Source: Cyanoderma ruficeps (taxonomy: Eukaryota > Chordata > Aves > Passeriformes > Timaliidae). From it: a stretch of 64,000 bases of DNA. Location of the stretch: positions 47,919,148 through 47,983,147 of the forward strand of contig VZDJ01007754.1 of assembly GCA_008694505.1 (NCBI GenBank), read 5' to 3'. Within the stretch, counting starts at the first letter, position 1. Each line of letters opens with the position of its first letter. Shown here piece after piece: positions 1-48,624 of the stretch. Under the pieces are notes generated by a model. It worked only from the letters and a program-made list of their open reading frames with translations, did not search any database and was not told the origin of the DNA. Position numbers and translations under genes: made by a program.

Positions 1-783
<783 letters not shown>

Positions 784-34147: not shown

Positions 34148-35606
<1,459 letters not shown>

Positions 35607-37330: not shown

Positions 37331-37852
37331 GTTACTGCATGGAAGGAGCATGGAGTTGTCATCCTGTAGGGTCCAGTAGCCACGGCAGAGCACTACAGAG
37401 AGCAGGAACTTGGTGTTTCAGAATGTTTTGGTACTTAGAGACACCAAAACAGTCTGAAGAAATGTACCTGTGGCACTCAGATCTGGTCCTTCATGGAGAC
37501 CAGTCCTTTGCAGCCTCCAGACCTTTCTACTGGGGGTGTGCAAAGAGCTCCGGAGACAGGAACGGGACTGTGGGTCCTCCTTGGTGCATCTCTCCCCAAC
37601 CTTTTCCAATTTTTTATGTCATTATGGCAATCTTAGAGGCAAACTTCCAACAGTTCTGTTTGATTGCGCCTTCTTGTGCTGTGGTGTGAGCGGGGCATCC
37701 CCCGGGTCCGTGATGCTTTCGCAGAGTTGGGGGTTCCCAAAATCTTCCCCGGGAGCCGCGGCGGTCCGGCCGGGCGCGGGGCCGGTGCAGCCCCAGCAAT
37801 GGCCACCGGGGGGCAGCGCCGGACCACCTGAAACCTGGCGGTTGTGGTGAAG

Positions 37853-38036
37853 GATGAGAAACTCGAGTCTTTTTCGAACCCTCATCATTCCCCAACTGGA
37901 TGAGAAACACGAATCTTTCCCGTGCCCTCCTCATTCCTTGGCTGAATGAGAAACACGAGTCTTTCCCGTGCCCTCCTCACTCCCCGCCTGAATGAGAAAT
38001 ACGAGTCTTTCCCGTACTCTCCTCGTTTCCCAGCTG
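37853..38036. repeat. 46-bp tandem repeat, four copies, within the CpG island
   Basis: Copies start at 37853, 37899, 37945 and 37991. Each begins with a (G/A)ATGAGAAA motif followed by an ACGAGTCTTTCCCGT-like core and a CTCCTCATTCCC-like end. The spacing is exactly 46 bp each time. Copies 2-4 are more alike than copy 1. Confidence 0.93.
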
Positions 38037-38078
38037 GGGAAAAGCCGGGGAGGACCCCAGTTCACCGGGACGGCAGCA

Positions 38079-38462
38079 ATGGCGGCGCCGCTCCCTCAGC
38101 GCCCGGCCCCGACTGCGGCGGACGGGGAGCCCTCGGCAGCGCCCTGGTGGCAGCAGGGACCGAGCCCCGGCCCCGGGCTCTGTGCCCGCGGCGCCGCAGA
38201 GGCGAGGGGAGAGCTGCAGAAGTCGGTGCCTCGGGCACTGCCCCGAGCCGGGAGCAGCAGCCGAGCCCTTGGAAGCGCACGAGGCTCTGGTGGTGCCGCT
38301 TGTGCAGCTTGTGCAGGTGCCTGTGGGTGGCCCCGTCTTTGCGTGGTGGCCCTGCCCCGCTCAGCATCCCGTCCCCGGCAAAGGCGACCAGGCTGCGCTC
38401 GGTGGCCCTGGGTGTCATTGCTAAAGGTGGTGAGAAGCCGCGGTGGCCGGGCAGAGCCCTGA
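38079..38462 (+). CDS. Possible upstream open frame, 127 aa, in the CpG island
   Basis: An ATG in a strong initiation context (GCAGCAATGG) opens a 127-codon frame rich in Ala, Arg, Pro and Gly, beginning MAAPLPQRPAPTAADG. The composition is what any frame in a CpG island gives, and no domain is recognised. It could be a first coding exon: a GTGAGA donor-like site lies at 38430. It could also be a chance upstream frame in a 5' leader. I lean to the latter. Confidence 0.2.
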   Translation: MAAPLPQRPAPTAADGEPSAAPWWQQGPSPGPGLCARGAAEARGELQKSVPRALPRAGSSSRALGSARGSGGAACAACAGACGWPRLCVVALPRSASRPRQRRPGCARWPWVSLLKVVRSRGGRAEP

Positions 38463-38918
38463 GGGACAGCCCTGGTCCCCGGCCTCCCGCGGCTCATGGA
38501 GCCACTGCCCACACATCCCTGGCATGTCTGTGCGGCCAATTCCTCGTGGCCTGGGCAGCGACAGCCTGCAAACCAGGGCTGTGCCCCGTGGGGCTGGGGC
38601 TGCCGTGTGGGAGCGTGACCAAAGCCCCTCAGCGCTCTGGGCACAGCAGGGGCCACAAGTGTGGGGGCTGCTCCGTGCCAGTTCCTGCCTGCTCCGCTGG
38701 TGTTGGGGTGCCGGGGGTGGCCCTTTGTGACACTGACGCTTTGTGTCAGGGCCCTATGTGATGTGGGACATGGTGGTGGCCAGAGAGCCTTGTGACATCA
38801 GGGAGCCCCGCCCTGGCTCTGAGGGTGTCTAAGGGGCGCAGAGCCCTGGGGTGCCCAGTGCCAGGAGAGCCACTCTGAGGGGGAAGCAGCTCGCTGCATC
38901 TGTCTGCGCTAAACACCC

Positions 38919-38998
38919 ATAGCGACAGACACCAATAGCATCAGACACCAATAGCAACAGACAGCGATGGCAACAAGGTAACTCCAACAAAGGTAACT
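38919..38998. repeat. Small degenerate repeat and duplicated donor-like sites
   Basis: ACACCAATAGCA-type units recur three times, from about 38929 to 38957. Two copies of AAGGTAACTCCAA follow at 38975 and 38991. The latter resemble splice donors (AAG|GTAACT). An in-frame TAA at 38994 closes the upstream end of the long reading frame. Confidence 0.55.
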
Positions 38999-39131
38999 CC
39001 AATCCCCGGTCCCCCAGCCCCTTGCCCAGCTGGCAGTGGGCAGTGCCACCAGCGGGCAGTGGTCAGGGGCAGTGGGCAGATCAGCCCTGCCACTGACAGA
39101 AACTGAGAAGGAGGAGCAGCCCTTCACCAAC

Positions 39132-42100
39132 ATGCACCAAGACCTTTCCCAGTGGGAAGATGATAGTGATGAGGAGCTTTCCCAGTGGGAAGAGGTAACA
39201 GTGAGAGAGAGGCAAGTAGTGACAGTCCAAGAAATTTCCCATCTGGGAGTCAGGAGGAGCAGAGAGCTGTACCAACACCAGGTACGTGTACATGTTCGAG
39301 AGGTTTCAGATTACAGCGATGAGACACACGAAGACATCTATGACTGGGAAGAAACCATCAAAGTCCGGGAGCTGTATGAGTGGGAAGAACACGGTGAGAT
39401 ATACCAAGAGGTGCATGAGTGGGAAGGATGTGTCACAACCCAAGGAATATTCCAATGGGAAATAGATGTGAGTGGGCAGCAGGAGCTGGAATGGAGAGAA
39501 GCTGAGAGATCCCATGAGCTGTCCTTACAAAGAGATGTAAGTGTCCCAGAGGATTCCCAATGGGATGATATCCGAGAGCTGGACCAGACACAAGGTGAGA
39601 GCTACCGAAACCTCTCACCATGGGAGCAAGGTGTGCACTCTCACATCTGTCAATGGGACAGTGATGAACAGGTGGCCCAGAGAGAAGGTGATAGATATGA
39701 AGCACTCTCACCATGGGAAGATGTCCACTCTCACATCTCTGAATGGGATGAGGTCCAAGAGCTGTCCCAGAGGGAAGATGAGAGGGATGAAGAACTCTCA
39801 CCATGCGAAGATGTGCACTCCCACATCTCTCAGTGGGACAATATCCAAGAGCCGTCCCAGAGGGAAGGTGAGAGATACGAAGAACTCTCACCATGGGAAC
39901 AAAGCATGACCTCCCACATCTCCCTATGGAAAGACAGAAGAGAAGCAGAAATGTCCCGGGTGGCAGACAGCAGTGAAAAGGATCGGTCACAAGCACCAGA
40001 CACCAGAGCCCAGGAGCTTCCCCTATGGGCAGATAGGAATGAACAAAGACTGGCCACATGGCAGGAGCATATGAGAAGAAAGGAGGTGTCCCAACGGAAA
40101 ACTGACATCAGCTCCATGACCTGGGGCACATCCTTGCAACAAGTGAGGGACAAGGAGGCCGAGCCTTGTCCAACAATGAGGCTCAGATTTCCCAGCCATA
40201 AGGAACAGAAGGAGGCAGCAGAGGCAGTGCCTGCCCTGCCCAGCCCCTCTCCTGCCCCAGGCAGACTCAGAGAGGCCGAGCCAGCAGCTGCTGCACTGGC
40301 CAGAGCTGATGAGGAGGAAGAGCTGCTCAAGCCTCTCACTCCAGAGGAGGTAAAGACAGCAGCTCCTTCTGTCTCCAGTGAGGAGCTACCATCAACAGAG
40401 AGCCCACCCATTGTCTCCTTAGACACCCCAACCAGAACCCAGGCTTCACCATGCCAGGAAGAGAATATCACTGAGGAGCTGCTGATCGAGGGAGAGATGG
40501 AGGCCTACAATGTGAGGCAGAAGCTGGAGGAAGAGTATGATGTCCAAGAACAGATGGCTGTAGAAGAAACACAGCCCAGATCTCCCAGCCCTGTGGGTGT
40601 GGAGGAGGCATCAGAGGCAGCACCTGCCCTGCCCAGCCCCTCTCCTGCCCCAGGCAGACTCAGAGAGGCTGAGCTGGCAGCTGCTGCCTCATGCAGAGCT
40701 GATGAAGAAGAGGTCCCTGAGCCTGTCACTCTGGAGGAGGTAAAGGCAGCAGTTCCTTCTATCTCCAGTGAGGAGCTGCCATCACCAAGGACACAGAGCC
40801 CACCCTGTGTCTCCTCTGACACCCCAATCTCCAGGCAGGCTTCACCATATCAGGATCAGAACATCACTGAGGAGTTCCCCATCGAGGGAGAGATGGAGGT
40901 CTACAAACCGAGGCAGAAGATGAAGGAAGAGTATGACGTCCAAGAACAGATGGCTGTAGACGAAACACAGCCCAGCTCTCCCAGCCCCATTGGCACAGAG
41001 GTGGCAGAAGAGGCAGTGCCTGCCCTGCCCAGCCCCTCTCCTGCCCCAGGCAGTCCCACAGAGGCCGAGCTGGCAGCTGCTGTCCCATCCAGAGCTGACA
41101 AGGTAGAAGAACTGCTTGAGCCATTCTCTCTGGCGGAGGTAAAGGCAGCAGCTCCTTCTCTCTCCAGTGAGGAGCTGCCATCACCAGGGACACAGAGCCC
41201 AACCAGTGTTTCCATCGACACTCTGACCAGCTCCCAGGCTTCACCATTCCAGGATCAGAACATCACTAAGGAATTCTTGATCGAGGGACTGCTGGAGGTC
41301 TGCAAACCGGGTCAGAAGCTGGAGGAAGAGGATGACATGCAAGAACAGATGGCTGTAGAAAAAACACAGTCCAGGTCTCCCAGCCCAGTTGGCACAGAGG
41401 TGGCAGAAGAGGCAGCACCTGCCCTGCCCATCCCATCACCTGCCCCATACAGTCCCACAGAGGCTGAGCTGGCAGCTGCTGTCTCATGCAGAGCTGTTGA
41501 GGAGGAAGAGCTGCCTGAGCCTCTCGCTCTGGAGGAGGTAAAGGAAGCAGCTCCTTCTGTCTCCAGCGAGGAGCTGCCATCACCAGGGACACAGACCCCA
41601 CCCAGTGTCTCCTTCGACACCCCAATCTCCAGGCAGGCTTCACCATTCCAGGATTCAAACATCAGTGAGGAGTTCCTGACTGAGAGAGAGATGGAGGTCT
41701 ACAAACTGAGGCAGAAGCTGGAGGAAGAGTATGACATCCAAGAACAGATGGCTGAAGAAGAAACACAGCCCAGATCTCCCAGCCCCATTGGCACAGAGGT
41801 GGCAGAAGAGGCAGTGCCTACCCTGCCCAGCCCCTCTCCTGCCCCAGGCAGTCCCACAGAGGCCGAGCTGGCAGCTGCTGCCCCATCCAGAGCTGACAAG
41901 ACGGAAGAACTGCTTGAGCCATTCTCTCTGGCGGAGGTAAAGGCAGCAGCTCCTACTCTCTCCAGTGAGGAGCTGCCATCACCAGGGACACAGAGCCCAA
42001 CCAGTGTTTCCATCGACACTCTGACCAGCTCCCAGGCTTCACCATTCCAGGATCAGAACATCACCGAGGAGTTCCTGATCGAGGGAGAGATGGAGGTCTA

Positions 42101-45100
42101 CAAACCGAGGCAGAAGCTAGAGGAAAAGTATGGCGTCCAAGAAGAAACACAGTCCAGGTCTCCCAGCCCTGTGGGCATGGAGGAGGCAGCAGAGGCAGCA
42201 CTTGCTGTTCCCAGCCCCTCTTTGGCCCCAGGCAGTCCCACAGAGGCCGAGCTGTCAGCTGCTCTCCCGACCAGAGTTTATGAGGAGGAGGAGGAGCTGC
42301 CTGAGCCTCTCGCTCCGGAGGAGGTAAAGGAAGCAGCTCCTTCTCTCTCCAGTGAGGAACTGCCATCACCAGGGACACAGAGCCCAACCAGTGTCTCCTT
42401 TGACACCCTAATCTTCAGGCAGGCTTCATCATTCCAGGATTCAAACATCAGTGAGGAGTTCCTGACTGAGGGAGAGATGGAGGTCTACAAACTGAGGCAG
42501 AAGCTGGAGGAAGAGTATGACGTCCAAGAACAGATGGCTGTAGAAGAAGCACAGCCCAGATCTCCCAGCCCCATTGGTGCAGAGGTGGCAGCGGAGGCAG
42601 AGCCTGCCCTGCCCAGCCCCTCTCCTGCCCCAGGCAGTCCCACAGAGGCCGAGGTGGCAGCTGCTGCCCCGGACAGAGCTGGTGAGGAGGAGGAGGAAGA
42701 GCTGCCTGAGCCTCTTGCTCCAGAGAAGGTAAAGGCAGGAGGTCCTTCTGTCTCCAGTGAGGAGCTGCCATCACTGGGGACACAGAACCCACCCAGTGTC
42801 TCCTTGAAGACCTCGACCAGCAGCCAGGCTTCACTGTACTGCGACCCAAACATCACCAGGGAGATTCTCTTCCTGATCCTGGGAATGGGAGCGTTCTACA
42901 AACTGAGGCAGAAGGCAGGAGAAGAGTATGACTTCCAACAATGGATGCCTATAGATAAAACACAGCTCACATTTCCCAGCCCTGTGGGCTTGGAGGAGAC
43001 AGCAGAGGCAGAGCCTGCCCTGCCCAGCACCTCTCCTTCCCCAAGCAGTCTCACAGAGGCTGAGCCATCAGCTGCTTCCCCGGCCAGATCTTATGAGGAG
43101 GAAGAGCTGCCTGAGCCTCTCGCTCCAGAGGAGGTAAAGGCAGCAGCTCCTACTCTCTCCAGTGAGGAGCTGCCATCACCAGGGTCACAGAGCCCACCCT
43201 GTGTCCCCCCCGACACCTCAACCAGCAGCCAGGCTTTACCATGCCAGGTCATGGACATCATCGATGAGATCCTGATCGAGGGACTGCTGGAGGTCTGCAA
43301 ACTGACACAGAGGCAGGAGGAGGATTATCATGTCCAAGAACAGATGGCTGCAGAAGAAACACAGCCCAGATCTCCCATCCCTGTGGATGTGGAGGACGCA
43401 GCAGAAGTAGTGTCTGCCCTGCCCAGCCCCTCTGTGGCCCCAGGCAGTCTCACAGAGGCCGAGCTGGCATCTGCTGCGTTGGCCAGAGCTGAGGAGGAGG
43501 AAGAGATGCTCAAGCCTCTCACTCCATATGAGACAAAGGCAGCAGCTCCTTTTGTCTCCAGTGAGGAGCTGCCATCACCAGGGACACAAAGTCCACCCAG
43601 TGTCCCCTTTGACACCCCGATCTCCAGTATCCAGGCTTTACCATATGATGATCAGAACATCACCGAGGAGACCCTGGTCCTGGCACTGATGGAGTTGTAC
43701 AGACTGAGAGAGAAGCTGGAGGAAGAGTACGACCTCCAACAATGGATGGCTGCAGAAGAAACACACCCCAGATCTCCCAGCCCTTTGGGCACAGAGGTGG
43801 CAGCAGAGGCAGCACCTGCCCTGCCCAGCCCCTCTCCTGCCCCAGGCAGTCTCACAGAGGCTGAGCTGGCAGCTGCTGCCCCATCCAGATCTGGTGAGCA
43901 GGAAGAGCTGCCTGAGCCACTCACTCCAGAGGAGATAAAGGCAGCAGGTCCTTCTCTCTCCAGTGAGGAGCTGCCATCACCAGGGACACAGAGCTTGCCC
44001 ATTGTCCCATCCGACATTCCAATCTCTAGGCAGGCATCACCCTGCCAGGATGTGGACATCATGGAGGAGTTCCTGTTTGTGACCATGGGACTCATGGGCC
44101 TGTCCAGATCTAGGCAGACACCAGAGGAAGAATATGATGTCCAACAATGGATGCAATGGATGGCTGCAGAAGAAACGCAGCCCAGATCTCCCAGCCCTTT
44201 GGGTGTTGAGGAGGCAGCAGAAGCAGCACCTGCCCTGCCCAGCCCCTCTCCTGCCCCAGGCAGTCTCACAGGGGCCGAGCCAGCAGCTGCCACCTGGGCC
44301 AGAGCTGATGAGGAGGAGGAAGAGCTGCCTGAGCTTGCTCTGGAGGAGGTAAAGGCAGCAGCTTCTTTTGTCTCCAGTGAGGAGCTGCCATCACCAGGGA
44401 CACAGAGCCCAACCAGTGTCTCCTTTTACACTGCAACCAGCTCCATGGCTTCACCATTCCAGGATCAGAACATCACCGAGGAGTTCCTGATCGAGGAAGA
44501 GATGGAGGTCTACAAAGTGAGGCAGAAGCTGGAGGAAGAGGATGATGTCCAAGAACAGATGGCTGTAGAAGAAACACAGCCCAGACCTCCCAGCCCTGTG
44601 GGCATGGAGGAGGCAGCAGAGGCAGCACCTGCCGTGCCCAGCCCCTCTCCTGCCCCAGGCAGCCTCAGAGAGGCTGAACTGGCAGCTGCTGCCCTGTCCA
44701 GAGCTGGTGAGGAGGAGGAGGAGCTGCCTGAGCCTCTCACTCCAGAGGAGATAAAGGCAGCAGGTCCTCCTGTCTCCAATGAGGAGCTGCCATCACCAGG
44801 GACACAGAGCTTGCCCATTGTCCCGTCCGACATCCCAATCTCCAGGCAGTCATCACCATGTCAGGATGTGGACATCATGGAGGAGTTCCTCTATGTGACC
44901 CTGGGACTGGTGGGCCTGTCCAGATCTAGGCAGACACCAGAGGAAGAATACGATGTCCAACAATGGATGGCTGCAGAAGAAACACAGCCCAGATCTCCCA
45001 GCCCTTTGGGTGTTGAGGAGGCAGCAGAAGCATCATCTGCCCTGCCCAGCCCTTCTCCTACCCCAGGCAGTCTCACAGGGGCCGAGCCAGCAGCTGCTAC

Positions 45101-45992
45101 CCGGGCCAGAGCTGATGAGGAGGAGGAAGAGCTGCCTGAGCTTGCTCTGGATGAGGTAAAGACAGCAACTTCTTTTGTCTCCAGTGAGGAGCTGCCATCA
45201 CCAGGGACACAGAGCCCAACCAGTGTCTCCTTCTACACCGCAACCAGCTCCATGGCTTCACCATTCCAGGATCAGAACATCACCGAGGAGTTCCTGATCG
45301 AGAGAGAGATGGAGGCCTACAAAGTGAGGCAGAACCTGGAGGAGGAGCATGGCGTCCAAGAACAGATGGCTGAAGAAGAAACACAGCCCAGCTCTCCCAG
45401 CCATGTGGGCGTGGAGAAGGCAGGAGAGGCAGAGCCTGCCGTGCCCAGCCCCTCTCCTGCCCCAGGCAGCCTCAGAGAGGCTGAGCTGGCAGTGGCTGCC
45501 TCCTGGGCCAGATCTTATGAGGAGGAAGAGCTGCCTGAGCCTCTCGCTCCAGAGGAGATAAAGGCAGCAGGTCCTCCTGTCTCCAGTGAGGAGCTGCCAT
45601 CACCAGGGACACAGAGCTTGCCCATTGTTCCCTCCAACATCCCAATCTCCAGCCAGGCTTCACCATGCCAGGATGCGGACATCGTCGAGGAGTTCCTGTT
45701 TGTGACCTTGGGACTGGTGGGGCTGTCCAGGCCTAGGCAGACACCAGAGGAAGAATATGATGTCCAACAATGGATGGCTGCAGAAGAAATGCAGCCCAGC
45801 TCTACCAACCCTGTGGGCTTGGAGGAGGCAGAAGAGGCAGTGCCTGCCCTGCTCAGCCCCTCTCCTGCCCCAGGCAGTCTCACAGAGGCTGAGCTGTCAG
45901 CTGCTGCCCTGTTCAGAGCTGACAAGGGGGAAGAGATGCCTGAGCCTCCTCTTTCCAGAGGAGGTACAGCCAGCAGCTCCTCTCGTCAGTGA
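39132..45992 (+). CDS. Unrecognised 2,286-aa acidic repeat protein nested in a DSCAM intron
   Basis: An uninterrupted frame starts at the first in-frame ATG (MHQDLSQWEDD, A at -3). The in-frame stop upstream is at 38994. Residues 1-145 are rich in Trp-Glu motifs (SQWEE, YDWEE, YEWEE). Residues 155-270 hold four SPWE..VHSHIS.WD repeats. From about residue 360, 14 copies of a 129-138 residue unit follow. Each unit has a Ser/Pro part (LPSPSPAPGS), an Ala/Glu part, the marker SSEELPSPGTQSP, and a helix-like part (YKLRQKLEEEYDVQEQM). There are no cysteine-rich or catalytic signatures and no signal peptide. All unit lengths differ by multiples of three bases while the units have diverged, which argues for a translated frame. 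The frame ends in a +1 shift near 45950. I do not recognise the family; the sequence looks intrinsically disordered and scaffold-like. A chance open minisatellite is the alternative. Confidence 0.65.
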   Translation: MHQDLSQWEDDSDEELSQWEEVTVRERQVVTVQEISHLGVRRSRELYQHQVRVHVREVSDYSDETHEDIYDWEETIKVRELYEWEEHGEIYQEVHEWEGCVTTQGIFQWEIDVSGQQELEWREAERSHELSLQRDVSVPEDSQWDDIRELDQTQGESYRNLSPWEQGVHSHICQWDSDEQVAQREGDRYEALSPWEDVHSHISEWDEVQELSQREDERDEELSPCEDVHSHISQWDNIQEPSQREGERYEELSPWEQSMTSHISLWKDRREAEMSRVADSSEKDRSQAPDTRAQELPLWADRNEQRLATWQEHMRRKEVSQRKTDISSMTWGTSLQQVRDKEAEPCPTMRLRFPSHKEQKEAAEAVPALPSPSPAPGRLREAEPAAAALARADEEEELLKPLTPEEVKTAAPSVSSEELPSTESPPIVSLDTPTRTQASPCQEENITEELLIEGEMEAYNVRQKLEEEYDVQEQMAVEETQPRSPSPVGVEEASEAAPALPSPSPAPGRLREAELAAAASCRADEEEVPEPVTLEEVKAAVPSISSEELPSPRTQSPPCVSSDTPISRQASPYQDQNITEEFPIEGEMEVYKPRQKMKEEYDVQEQMAVDETQPSSPSPIGTEVAEEAVPALPSPSPAPGSPTEAELAAAVPSRADKVEELLEPFSLAEVKAAAPSLSSEELPSPGTQSPTSVSIDTLTSSQASPFQDQNITKEFLIEGLLEVCKPGQKLEEEDDMQEQMAVEKTQSRSPSPVGTEVAEEAAPALPIPSPAPYSPTEAELAAAVSCRAVEEEELPEPLALEEVKEAAPSVSSEELPSPGTQTPPSVSFDTPISRQASPFQDSNISEEFLTEREMEVYKLRQKLEEEYDIQEQMAEEETQPRSPSPIGTEVAEEAVPTLPSPSPAPGSPTEAELAAAAPSRADKTEELLEPFSLAEVKAAAPTLSSEELPSPGTQSPTSVSIDTLTSSQASPFQDQNITEEFLIEGEMEVYKPRQKLEEKYGVQEETQSRSPSPVGMEEAAEAALAVPSPSLAPGSPTEAELSAALPTRVYEEEEELPEPLAPEEVKEAAPSLSSEELPSPGTQSPTSVSFDTLIFRQASSFQDSNISEEFLTEGEMEVYKLRQKLEEEYDVQEQMAVEEAQPRSPSPIGAEVAAEAEPALPSPSPAPGSPTEAEVAAAAPDRAGEEEEEELPEPLAPEKVKAGGPSVSSEELPSLGTQNPPSVSLKTSTSSQASLYCDPNITREILFLILGMGAFYKLRQKAGEEYDFQQWMPIDKTQLTFPSPVGLEETAEAEPALPSTSPSPSSLTEAEPSAASPARSYEEEELPEPLAPEEVKAAAPTLSSEELPSPGSQSPPCVPPDTSTSSQALPCQVMDIIDEILIEGLLEVCKLTQRQEEDYHVQEQMAAEETQPRSPIPVDVEDAAEVVSALPSPSVAPGSLTEAELASAALARAEEEEEMLKPLTPYETKAAAPFVSSEELPSPGTQSPPSVPFDTPISSIQALPYDDQNITEETLVLALMELYRLREKLEEEYDLQQWMAAEETHPRSPSPLGTEVAAEAAPALPSPSPAPGSLTEAELAAAAPSRSGEQEELPEPLTPEEIKAAGPSLSSEELPSPGTQSLPIVPSDIPISRQASPCQDVDIMEEFLFVTMGLMGLSRSRQTPEEEYDVQQWMQWMAAEETQPRSPSPLGVEEAAEAAPALPSPSPAPGSLTGAEPAAATWARADEEEEELPELALEEVKAAASFVSSEELPSPGTQSPTSVSFYTATSSMASPFQDQNITEEFLIEEEMEVYKVRQKLEEEDDVQEQMAVEETQPRPPSPVGMEEAAEAAPAVPSPSPAPGSLREAELAAAALSRAGEEEEELPEPLTPEEIKAAGPPVSNEELPSPGTQSLPIVPSDIPISRQSSPCQDVDIMEEFLYVTLGLVGLSRSRQTPEEEYDVQQWMAAEETQPRSPSPLGVEEAAEASSALPSPSPTPGSLTGAEPAAATRARADEEEEELPELALDEVKTATSFVSSEELPSPGTQSPTSVSFYTATSSMASPFQDQNITEEFLIEREMEAYKVRQNLEEEHGVQEQMAEEETQPSSPSHVGVEKAGEAEPAVPSPSPAPGSLREAELAVAASWARSYEEEELPEPLAPEEIKAAGPPVSSEELPSPGTQSLPIVPSNIPISSQASPCQDADIVEEFLFVTLGLVGLSRPRQTPEEEYDVQQWMAAEEMQPSSTNPVGLEEAEEAVPALLSPSPAPGSLTEAELSAAALFRADKGEEMPEPPLSRGGTASSSSRQ
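39606..39935 (+). repeat. Four coding repeats of 30-31 codons (SPWE/VHSHIS/QWD)
   Basis: Units are anchored at the SPW(C)E codons at 39615, 39708, 39798 and 39888, spaced 93, 90 and 90 bp. The consensus is LSPWEDVHSHISQWD followed by a QEPSQREGER-type linker. The last copy is altered (SMTSHISLWKD). It sits inside the long frame before the main array. Confidence 0.9.
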
Positions 45993-46800
45993 GAAGCTGC
46001 CATCACCAGGGACACAGAGCCCACCCAGTGTCCCTTTCAACACCTTGACCAACAGCCAGGCTTCACCATGCCAGGACACAAACATCCCCAAGGAGATTCT
46101 GATCCTGATCCTGATTTTGTACAACATCTGGCGAAACTGGAAGCACCGTAGGACCTCTAACAATTAATGGCTGTAGAAGAAACTTTGCCCTGCTTTTCCA
46201 GCCCTGTGGGTGTGGAGGTGGCAGCAGAGGCAGCACCTGCCCTGCCCCTGGCAGTTCCACGGAGGCCGAGCTGGCAGCTGCTGCCCCAGCCAGAGCTGGT
46301 GAGAAGGAAGAGCTGCCTTAGCCTCTCCTTCCAGGGGAGGGAAAGGCAGCAGCTCCTTCTCTCTCCACTGTGGAGCTGCCATCACCAGGGACACAGAGCT
46401 CCCCCACTGTCCCCTCTGACACCCCAATCTGCAGCTAGTCTTCACTGTGCCAGATGTTCTGTGATCAGAACATCACTGAGGAGTTCCTGATTGAGGGATT
46501 GATGGACTTCCTTGTCATGAGGCAGAAGCTGGATGAGTATGCCCTTCAACAACAGATGGCTGTAGAATGAGCACAGCTTAACTCTCCCAGCCCCGTGGGC
46601 ACTGAGGTGGCAGCGGAGGCAGCCTGTCCCCTGCCCAGTGGCTCTCCTGCCCCGCTGAGTCCCATGTACCAGAACATCACCAGGGAGGTCCTGAGTCATG
46701 TGCTACAGAAAATCCAGGCACTGAAGCATCAGCTGAAAGACATCTATGGTCTTCAACAGATGTTGGTTGTAGAAGTAGAATCAGTAATCACAGCCAAAAG
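40205..46800 (+). repeat. About 400-bp tandem repeat array, 14 intact plus at least 2 decayed copies
   Basis: Anchoring on the (GTC)TCCAGTGAGGAG word, copies lie at 40371, 40761, 41160, 41559, 41958, 42345, 42750, 43155, 43554, 43956, 44370, 44772, 45177 and 45579. The spacings are 390, 399, 399, 399, 387, 405, 405, 399, 402, 414, 402, 405 and 402 bp, all multiples of three. Later anchors near 45985 and 46364 break this rule (about 403 and 379 bp). A final partial unit without the SSEELP segment runs to about 46800. Each unit encodes the acidic protein repeat of the long frame. Confidence 0.95.
45944..46800 (+). pseudogene. Decayed 3' copies of the coding repeat after a +1 frameshift
   Basis: Near 45944-45955 an extra base in CCTCCTCTTTCCAGAGGAGG throws the main frame out, and it stops at 45990-45992. 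The repeat protein continues in the next frame (VSEKLPSPGTQSPPS, then ILILILILYNIWRNWK) to a stop at 46165. It then resumes in other frames (MAVEETLPCFSSPVG from 46167; NITREVLSHVLQKI around 46670) with further shifts and stops. These are degenerate units no longer under frame constraint, or an assembly error splits a longer protein. Confidence 0.7.
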
Positions 46801-46964
46801 GGAAGAGGGCTCCGTGCCTGCCCTGCTCAGCACCCCCAGCCCCTGGTCTGCCCAGCTGGGAGCCCAGGTCCTCTGTGGGCAGCTGGCTGCCCCCAGGAAA
46901 TGTCTCTCCCTCTTCAGGCAGGTGCTGTGTGCACTGCAGGGGCCGTTCCAGTGTCCCTGCCTGA

Positions 46965-47216
46965 GGCCACAGCCAAAAGAGTAAAACAGATGAGGAAGAA
47001 GAGGAAAAAGAAGACAAAGACAAACAAGATGAAGGACATGACAAAGAAGATGAAGATGAAGATGACGAAGATGAAGAAGATCAAGAGGGAGATGAAGACA
47101 AAGAAGACAATGAAGATGAAGATGATGACGAAGACAAAGAATACAATGATGATAAAGAAGATGAAGATGGCTGCCTGAGTTTTGAAACAAATTTAAGAAA
47201 GGACTCTCCGCATTGA
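46965..47216 (+). CDS. Possible Asp/Glu-rich C-terminal exon, first acidic tail
   Basis: After a TGA at 46962 a frame without ATG opens: SQKSKTDEEEEKEDKDKQ and onwards, mostly D, E and K, closing with CLSFETNLRKDSPH and a stop at 47214. AG acceptor-like sites (GGCCACAG at 46965-46972, TTCCAG at 46946-46951) stand close to its start. The non-repetitive end and the strongly acidic reading suggest a C-terminal exon. It could equally be a (GAN)n simple repeat read in its most acidic phase. Confidence 0.35.
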   Translation, partial: GHSQKSKTDEEEEEKEDKDKQDEGHDKEDEDEDDEDEEDQEGDEDKEDNEDEDDDEDKEYNDDKEDEDGCLSFETNLRKDSPH

Positions 47217-47424: not shown

Positions 47425-48288
47425 ATGGGGTGTGAGATGGTACCAGCTTTCACACCGAGGGACATGGATCTTCCACAGAGGAGTTCCATCCATCAGGAGC
47501 CCTGGTGTCTCTCTAGCACTGACCTCCTCTCTAGGGCAGACGAAGCAGCTCGGCTGGAGTCTCTTGCTCTGCTTTCTGTGCCCGGCTCGGCTCCCCAAGG
47601 CTTGGGGCTGGAACGGGACAGCCCCGTTCCCGCTGGTGCCTCTCCCCTGGTGTGGGAGCAGCAGGTGCTCAGTTCAGCTGGAGGATCTGGAAGATTGCTG
47701 CTGCAGATCCTCCAAGCCAGGGAAGGGAAAAGCTTTTTGATGGGCAGCCAAAGCCAAGCAAGCCCAGCAAAACCAAACTGCACAACTCCACAGAACACCT
47801 GGGCAGTGAGGATTGGAAAATGCCCACCCAAAGAGCCCAAAGCTCCCCCCTTCCCCAGCCCCGCACACACCCAGCCCCAGGCCTGGAAGGTACAGCAGCC
47901 ATTCCTTGGGCATAAAGCAGAGGCTCCTGGAACAGGCTGTCACCATAAACCACTCCAAGACAATGACAAAGAAGACAAAGACGATGAAGACAAAGACAAC
48001 GAAGAAGAAGAAGAAGATGAAGACAAAGAAGAAGATGAAGATGAAGAAGAAGAAGAGGNAGAAGAAGCCAAAGATGACAAGAAGATGGAGACAAAGATGA
48101 TGAAGAAGATGATTACGACAATGATGAAGATGATGACAACAATGATGAGGATGGTGACGACAATGATGAAGCAGATGAAGATAAAGACTAAGAAGATGGA
48201 GGAGATGAAGAAGAATAATTTAAAAATACATACAAGAAGAATAGTAATAAAATTTAAAAACAGACGAGTAATAAGCATAAGAGTTTAA
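47425..48288 (+). CDS. Possible open frame of 287 codons with a second acidic tract
   Basis: An ATG at 47425 opens a frame beginning MGCEMVPAFTPRDMDLP, of unrecognised ordinary composition. At about residue 178 it becomes a Glu/Asp tract (NDKEDKDDEDKDNEEEEE). Past the undetermined base at 48059 the frame turns into Met/Lys-rich nonsense-like text. A different frame there reads QEDGDKDDEEDDYDNDED to a TAA at 48189. The N may therefore hide an indel and the true acidic tail may end at 48189. No domain was recognised. Confidence 0.3.
   Translation: MGCEMVPAFTPRDMDLPQRSSIHQEPWCLSSTDLLSRADEAARLESLALLSVPGSAPQGLGLERDSPVPAGASPLVWEQQVLSSAGGSGRLLLQILQAREGKSFLMGSQSQASPAKPNCTTPQNTWAVRIGKCPPKEPKAPPFPSPAHTQPQAWKVQQPFLGHKAEAPGTGCHHKPLQDNDKEDKDDEDKDNEEEEEDEDKEEDEDEEEEEXEEAKDDKKMETKMMKKMITTMMKMMTTMMRMVTTMMKQMKIKTKKMEEMKKNNLKIHTRRIVIKFKNRRVISIRV
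48059..48059. other. Undetermined base in an acidic-coding simple repeat
   Basis: A single N lies within GAAGAAGAGG-N-AGAAGAAGCC. Coding phase appears to change near here. Confidence 0.9.
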
Positions 48289-48618: not shown

Positions 48619-48624
48619 AATAAA
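48619..48624 (+). terminator. Polyadenylation signal AATAAA, candidate end of the nested transcript
   Basis: CCTAATAAAGTTTATAAGG contains a canonical AATAAA after about 400 bp of very AT-rich sequence (48200-48620) that follows the acidic tails. It is the best placed plus-strand signal for the nested locus. Such hexamers also occur by chance in AT-rich sequence. Confidence 0.4.

What the first reader, a model, noticed from the sequence alone, without database searches (positions are those of the whole stretch)
39132..45992. A 2,286-codon uninterrupted frame for an unrecognised repeat protein nested in a DSCAM intron
Seen: a 6.9 kb open frame on the DSCAM strand, with a CpG island upstream, Trp-Glu-rich repeats first, then 14 copies of a roughly 133-residue acidic Pro/Ser-rich unit. 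Every copy-to-copy spacing is a multiple of three although the units have diverged in both substitutions and length. Downstream, where the frame is broken, spacings stop being multiples of three. That contrast suggests selection for translation. I know of no DSCAM-nested gene of this kind in vertebrates, and the protein matches no family that I recognise. Inference: a lineage-specific, possibly retrocopied or de novo gene encoding a disordered scaffold-like protein.
Basis: partly seen in the sequence, partly recalled or inferred. Interest (0 to 1): 0.88.

Follow-up and report, generated by a model that had tools for sequence, protein, structure and literature searches.

The report
Songbird family gene inside DSCAM intron
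A 6.9-kb uninterrupted reading frame inside an intron of a bird's DSCAM gene belongs to a scattered, apparently undescribed gene family whose named relatives are all perching birds; one 133-residue module occurs fourteen times in it, and the frame likely encodes a huge, mostly floppy scaffold protein that selection has likely kept readable.

Summary
The frame (ATG 39132 to stop 45992, 2,286 codons) lies on the DSCAM strand, downstream of the last DSCAM exon found in the window. It has a Trp-Glu-rich first part and 14 full units of about 133 residues. In a nucleotide alignment not forced to codons, 9 of 9 gap patterns between units are multiples of three. Neutral simulations expect about 22-24 stops; none is seen. 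Just downstream the same repeat carries 3 frameshifts and 5 in-frame stops. Yet unit-to-unit dN/dS is about 0.8, no lower than in wrong frames: the frame looks protected, the residues hardly.

It is neither de novo nor family-less. The same genome holds at least 18 family places, the window included; 7 have gap-free frames of 856-2,331 codons. Fifty-one database relatives were found (one weak); the 48 named ones are all passerines, under misnomers such as 'trichohyalin-like'. Loci amplify different internal modules. The window gene has lost the family's start region and its basic C-terminal helix. Eight of nine paralogue comparisons give dN/dS 0.25-0.62, one gives 1.12. Most likely it encodes a soluble, acidic, multivalent disordered scaffold. 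Transcription, passerine restriction and function remain untested.

The parts
595..774 (+). DSCAM exon (host gene, upstream)
   Evidence: matches PDB 6zr7 residues 134-193, E 1.4e-34
34148..34246 (+). DSCAM exon; the frame lies in the intron after it
   Evidence: matches PDB 6zr7 residues 260-292, E 3.6e-19; no later DSCAM exon noticed in the window with simple motif scans
37501..38500 (.). CpG-rich stretch, candidate promoter region, with a 46-base tandem repeat at 37852-38037
   Evidence: CpG observed/expected 0.66 and 0.72 in two 500-base windows; tandem repeat. Promoter role inferred
38315..38910 (+). family 5' element, shared with other family loci
   Evidence: 29 places in the genome, the window included; 91% (C30), 89% (C390), 87% (C479:26.3M) identity
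38990..39131 (+). remnant of the family's original N-terminal codons, out of frame in part
   Evidence: DNA match to C264 and C21 starts here; translations show the family peptide in one frame, then in the frame of the ORF
39132..45992 (+). 2,286-codon open reading frame
39132..40232 (+). Trp-Glu-rich N-terminal part, 367 codons
   Evidence: relatives P0001-P0003 at E 1.1e-14 to 4.6e-24
40233..45845 (+). array of 14 full units of 128-138 codons
   Evidence: only single partial units found elsewhere in the held assembly
45948..45948 (+). one-base insertion that ends the frame
   Evidence: alignment to unit 7
45949..46610 (+). decayed continuation of the array: further 4- and 16-base deletions and five stops in the unit frame
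46571..46981 (+). family C-terminus in another frame, 137 codons, with the basic helix and Cys-Pro-Cys motif; lost from the big frame
   Evidence: alignment; 80% DNA identity to C479:26.3M over 46782-46986
48619..48624 (+). AATAAA, possible poly(A) signal
   Evidence: role inferred

Best explanation
The frame is a member of a dispersed gene family whose named relatives are all passerine birds, it holds fourteen in-phase copies of a 133-codon module, and it likely encodes a 249-kDa, mostly disordered, acidic scaffold protein that selection has likely kept readable. Shown: the family, the shared parts, the array at this locus, and the absence of stops and out-of-phase indels against neutral expectation. 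Inferred: the frame is transcribed and translated from ATG 39132, perhaps from the CpG-rich stretch and shared 5' element upstream. Inferred mechanism: each unit presents one roughly 30-residue helix on a Pro/Ser/Glu linker, so copy number would set the number of binding sites on a flexible string (multivalent tethering). Many family members end in a short basic helix, often with Cys, that would anchor them to a membrane or partner. The window frame has lost that tail by a frameshift, so its product would be soluble. The array appears to tolerate residue replacement but not loss of frame, as expected if length, charge and helix spacing matter more than exact residues.
For: Six sets of 300 simulations along the units' own tree (1.41 substitutions per site), each started from a real unit, gave 21.7-24.4 stops on average and never zero in 1,800 runs; the frame has none. 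Gap patterns in phase: 9 of 9. All 8 disablements found lie in the 663 bases 45948-46610, none in the 6,816 before (about 4e-9 if uniform; about 9e-8 if the whole tail to 46981 is counted; the tail's bounds were chosen after seeing it). The array was found only here in the held genome (16 unit matches; 9 partial matches elsewhere), so its coding history was probably local. Paralogues are constrained: without masking, 8 of 9 comparisons give dN/dS 0.25-0.62; C30 vs C390 0.25 (13 replacement, 15 silent changes; p 3e-4). Relatives: 4 database proteins, one of them weak, and 47 more; at least 18 places in the genome, window included. Structure models: long helix in the Trp-Glu part, helix in the module, C-terminal helix, most of the rest disordered; pI 4.1, net charge -323.
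Against: No transcript, peptide or ortholog DNA could be examined. Unit-to-unit dN/dS is 0.81 pooled, and one wrong frame scores lower (0.72), as does another (0.76); codon positions diverge alike: residue-level purifying selection is not visible in the array. One of nine paralogue comparisons gives 1.12 (C44-C21, 166 codons), and C30/C390 may be two haplotypes of one locus. Both family ends are damaged here, which is also what a dying gene looks like. The 137-codon C-terminal piece is itself free of stops, so a spliced product that skips the decayed stretch is possible. Models are of low confidence overall (mean pLDDT 56 and 51), and only one of the two units modelled has a confident helix. 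A search with the whole 2,286-residue protein scored 7,977 candidates and found no relative at E 0.001. The simulation ignores rate variation among sites and CpG effects.
Confidence: 0.66

Rival explanations
1. A recently silenced family member: the array was coding for most of its history, but the losses at both ends mark a pseudogene that has not yet picked up internal stops.
For: Original start region and C-terminus are broken; other family copies in the genome are broken, e.g. C479:7.92M with several stops and C462; residue constraint in the array is not visible.
Against: The stretch after the truncation has gathered 8 disablements in 663 bases while 6,816 bases upstream have none; a gene released at the time of the truncation should carry dozens. 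Some relatives are also annotated to start at the downstream Met (by eye, e.g. P0029, P0042).
Confidence: 0.2
2. The reading frame is a by-product: a GC-rich, stop-poor tandem repeat expanded recently and stays open by chance or by gene conversion, without being translated.
For: Flat codon-position divergence and a dN/dS near 0.8 between units, no lower than in wrong frames.
Against: Units are not recent: they differ by about 20% on average, the closest pairs by 6.5-11%. Simulations without selection broke the frame in 1,800 of 1,800 runs (297 of 300 on a tree a quarter as long). Other frames have 33-113 stops. Tail units, about as diverged as units 7-9, did break. Paralogues without this array have long open frames with dN/dS mostly below 0.65.
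Confidence: 0.06
3. The frame is one exon of a longer spliced gene: splicing from inside the array to the intact C-terminal piece (46571-46981) would restore the family's basic Cys-containing tail.
For: The C-terminal piece is open for 137 codons beside a decayed stretch; units contain donor-like GAG|GTAAAG words by eye.
Against: Its comparison with C479:26.3M shows more replacement than silent change (dN/dS 2.7, p 0.04), not conservation; several paralogues carry the same parts in one uninterrupted frame.
Confidence: 0.08

Closest known systems
Passerine database proteins annotated 'retinitis pigmentosa 1-like 1', 'trichohyalin-like', 'fibrous sheath CABYR-binding protein-like', 'MAP7 domain-containing protein 1-like', 'helicase SRCAP-like' (P0001-P0051)
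   Same: Trp-Glu-rich N-terminus, acidic Pro/Ser/Ala module with a short helix, basic C-terminus, internal repeats, in varying combinations
   Different: I saw no 14-fold array of this unit in them; none of the 13 scanned has a Pfam domain above its cut-off (the database itself lists PF27662.1 for P0018, which my scan did not show); 32 of 51 keep, by eye, the C-terminal tail that the window frame lost
FSCB (fibrous sheath CABYR-binding protein), involucrin and trichohyalin (features recalled)
   Same: Fast-evolving, low-complexity proteins whose internal repeats change number between species (recalled)
   Different: Not compared by sequence; the window frame has no Pfam domain above cut-off, so no S100 domain as in trichohyalin
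Passerine GH2, the duplicated growth hormone gene (PMC10016047)
   Same: A gene present across passerines and said to be absent from other birds (part of the abstract seen)
   Different: A single duplicate of a known hormone gene, not a dispersed repeat-rich family

Membership tests
dispersed passerine Trp-Glu / module / basic-tail family (this work) | Trp-Glu-rich N-terminal repeats homologous to relatives | tested here: met
   P0001 37% identity over 61% of the query, E 4.6e-24; P0002 48% over 26%; P0003 55% over 25%
dispersed passerine Trp-Glu / module / basic-tail family (this work) | acidic Pro/Ser/Ala module with the helix segment | tested here: met
   alignment with P0003; 9 partial DNA matches to the unit at 73-89% outside the locus
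dispersed passerine Trp-Glu / module / basic-tail family (this work) | basic C-terminal helix in the same frame | tested here: not met
   encoded at 46571-46981 but out of frame with the 2,286-codon frame; present by eye in 32 of 51 database relatives, while my regular expression caught 19 of 56 rows
dispersed passerine Trp-Glu / module / basic-tail family (this work) | shared 5' element | tested here: met
   29 places including the window, others at 70-96% identity over parts of it
trichohyalin / S100-fused proteins | N-terminal S100 EF-hand domain (recalled) | tested here: not met
   no Pfam match above cut-off in the window frame nor in P0007, which bears that name
RP1L1 | doublecortin domains (recalled) | tested here: not met
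   no Pfam match in P0005 and P0006, which bear that name, nor above cut-off in the window frame
FSCB | homology to mammalian FSCB and binding of CABYR (recalled) | not tested
   no mammalian FSCB sequence was compared
processed retrocopy | lack of promoter sequence, poly(A) tail, target-site duplication | tested here: inconclusive
   5' and 3' flanks are shared with C479:26.3M; tail and target-site duplication not examined

The most novel reading that the evidence does not exclude
Passerine birds carry their own multigene family, born before suboscines and oscines split, that copies itself around the genome with its promoter and in which each locus amplifies a different internal module in phase; the DSCAM-nested copy is its most extreme member and has turned from an anchored into a free, 14-helix scaffold serving a passerine-specific cell structure.
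Probability: 0.3. Interest if true: 0.78.

Novelty: new variant of a known kind. Interest (0 to 1): 0.56.

Why it matters
Genes present across passerines but not other birds are said to be almost unknown (the abstract of PMC10016047 names one). A family with at least 18 places in one genome, found in suboscines and oscines and hidden under misleading names, would be a clear addition if its absence from other birds is confirmed. It also offers a natural experiment: one protein plan in which modules of about 11, 22, 66, 133 and 231 residues have been multiplied in different loci, with the frame kept while residues drift.

Tried and rejected
Chance frame: rejected by composition (4e-38 for independent bases) and by stops in the other five frames. 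De novo gene: rejected by paralogues. Known domains: none by Pfam above cut-off for the window frame (best 9.9 bits against 27), none in the solved-structure sequences at E up to 1, no Rfam family in the window at gathering scores. Whole-protein homology search: nothing; the N-terminal piece worked. Orthology of the crow protein P0003 to the window gene: first thought likely, then left open because different parts of it fit different loci. Third-position excess in the array: looked for, not found. Literature: seven searches (two returned no paper, the others I judged by listings) showed me no description of this family. Of PMC4377847 I saw passages: no DSCAM, trichohyalin or fibrous sheath, but it sets aside 28 intron-less candidate novel genes flanked by repeats, which could include members. 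Of PMC10016047 I saw part of the abstract and one passage of the introduction. Fold searches were not run because the models are of low confidence.

Full report
Observation. DSCAM exons on the same strand match the solved DSCAM chain 6zr7; the frame lies downstream of the second of them, and simple motif scans showed no later exon in the window. That these exons belong to Ig domains 8 and 9 is recalled. The frame has 367 Trp-Glu-rich codons, then 14 full units (128-138 codons) and a cut 15th.

Is it coding? A tree of the 14 units is 1.41 substitutions per site long. Neutral evolution along it, started from six different real units, gave 21.7-24.4 stops on average and never none in 1,800 runs; the array has none. 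On a tree shrunk to a quarter, 3 of 300 runs had none. In a nucleotide alignment not forced to codons, 9 of 9 gap patterns are multiples of three; of 13 pairwise alignments, 4 place 1- or 2-base gaps that cancel within the unit. Directly after a one-base insertion at 45948, the same repeat holds two more frameshifting deletions and five stops in the unit frame. All 8 fall in 663 of 7,479 bases; counting the tail to its end at 46981, 1,033 of 7,849, the chance is 9e-8. I set these bounds after seeing the decay, and the damaged start region 38990-39131 is left out of this count. Against this, unit-to-unit dN/dS is 0.81 pooled, within the 0.72-0.97 of the five wrong frames, and codon positions diverge equally. 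My reading: frame, length and charge have been protected, the residues hardly.

What is it? The N-terminal part finds four passerine proteins, one of them only at E 0.07, and a profile of four members finds 47 more. Of the 51, 48 carry an organism name; all are passerines (19 genera, suboscines and oscines; two species checked in the taxonomy, the others recalled). Many come from a few species (Pithys, Hirundo). Only the 7,991 candidates sharing most words, and of similar length, were scored, so absence elsewhere is not proven. Their names mislead: none of the 13 relatives and one genome locus scanned has a Pfam domain above its cut-off, though the database lists PF27662.1 for P0018.

In the window's own genome, three protein searches show at least 18 places, the window included (two more are weak), and a DNA search 29 places with the 5' element 38315-38910, the window included. 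Counts are lower bounds by the tool's own note. Seven places have gap-free stop-to-stop frames of 856 codons or more: window 2,331, C85 1,592, C479:26.3M 1,035, C30 1,012, C390 960, C44 899, C264 856. Others are broken, such as C479:7.92M, C17, C224 and C479:47.1M. C21 and C462 contain assembly gaps.

Family plan, by eye from alignments and translations. Trp-Glu repeats; an acidic Pro/Ser/Ala module with one helix; further Glu-rich repeats; a conserved stretch; a basic helix near the end, often with Cys. Loci amplify different parts: the commonest repeat periods are 22 residues in C264 and C44, 11 in C30 and C390, 231-233 in C85, 80 in C479:26.3M, 66 in zebra finch P0025, 132 in antbird P0007, about 133 in the window. 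The window's array was found nowhere else in the genome: 16 unit matches here, 9 partial ones elsewhere. Nine paralogue comparisons, no codons masked, give dN/dS 0.25 (C30-C390), 0.45, 0.46, 0.54, 0.58, 0.61, 0.61, 0.62 and 1.12 (the last a 166-codon stretch of C44-C21) (with the mask 0.25-0.64 and 1.12). C30 and C390 could be two haplotypes.

What is lost here. The family's first codons are recognisable upstream of ATG 39132 but partly out of frame; C85 shows the same kind of damage and would start at the equivalent internal Met. The C-terminus is encoded at 46571-46981 but is separated from the frame by the frameshifts. That piece compared with C479:26.3M has more replacement than silent change (dN/dS 2.7, p 0.04, 63 codons).

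How it would work. A model of P0003 with 26 sequences has high-confidence helices in the Trp-Glu part and in the module, weaker ones at 288-305 and at the C-terminus, and little else (mean pLDDT 56). A model of units 11 and 12 has one confident helix, 83-115 in unit 11, and only weak ones in unit 12 (mean 51). Units 10, 12 and 14 carry a more hydrophobic segment there, units 11 and 13 a more acidic one, and several nearest relatives are two units apart, which suggests growth by pairs. The product would be a 249-kDa chain with pI 4.1 and net charge -323. I infer a multivalent tether; tissue and partner are unknown.

Verdict. Real, and likely functional now or until very recently: a member of an apparently undescribed passerine family rather than an isolated novelty.

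Noticed in passing
window 38315-38910 and 28 other places in G000: The 5' element is more alike between some loci (87-91%) than their coding parts, suggesting promoter-carrying copies, mosaic recombination or gene conversion.
   Followed up: partly
window 46782-46974 against L014: Third codon positions differ less (0.078) than first and second (0.219, 0.277) in the C-terminal piece.
   Followed up: partly
L013, L017, L018, L019, P0025, P0007: Several internal repeat periods are multiples of 11 residues (11, 22, 44, 66, 77, 88, 132, 231), as if built from an 11-residue block; others listed (12, 21, 40, 67, 80, 87, 120, 155, 233, 248) are not.
   Followed up: no
window 46995-47170 and 47957-48200: Two purine-rich (GAA/GAT/GAC) simple-repeat blocks on the same strand follow the array; similar blocks follow the C479:26.3M and C30 copies.
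   Followed up: no
L018 and L019: C30 and C390 copies are nearly identical (dS 0.024), so they may be recent duplicates or two haplotypes assembled apart.
   Followed up: no
L019:756-1970 (minus strand): A minisatellite gives a 405-codon frame with about ten near-identical copies of a 21-residue unit next to a family copy.
   Followed up: no
P0018 and P0001: Database models seem to fuse family sequence with other things: P0018 is named 'protein downstream neighbor of Son', and P0001 begins with reverse-transcriptase-like sequence (recognised by eye).
   Followed up: no
G000 C479 46.18-47.96 Mb: Six family-related places (46.19, 46.42, 46.51, 46.83, 47.13, 47.96 Mb) lie close to DSCAM; four of them were seen by part of the 5' element only.
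   Followed up: no
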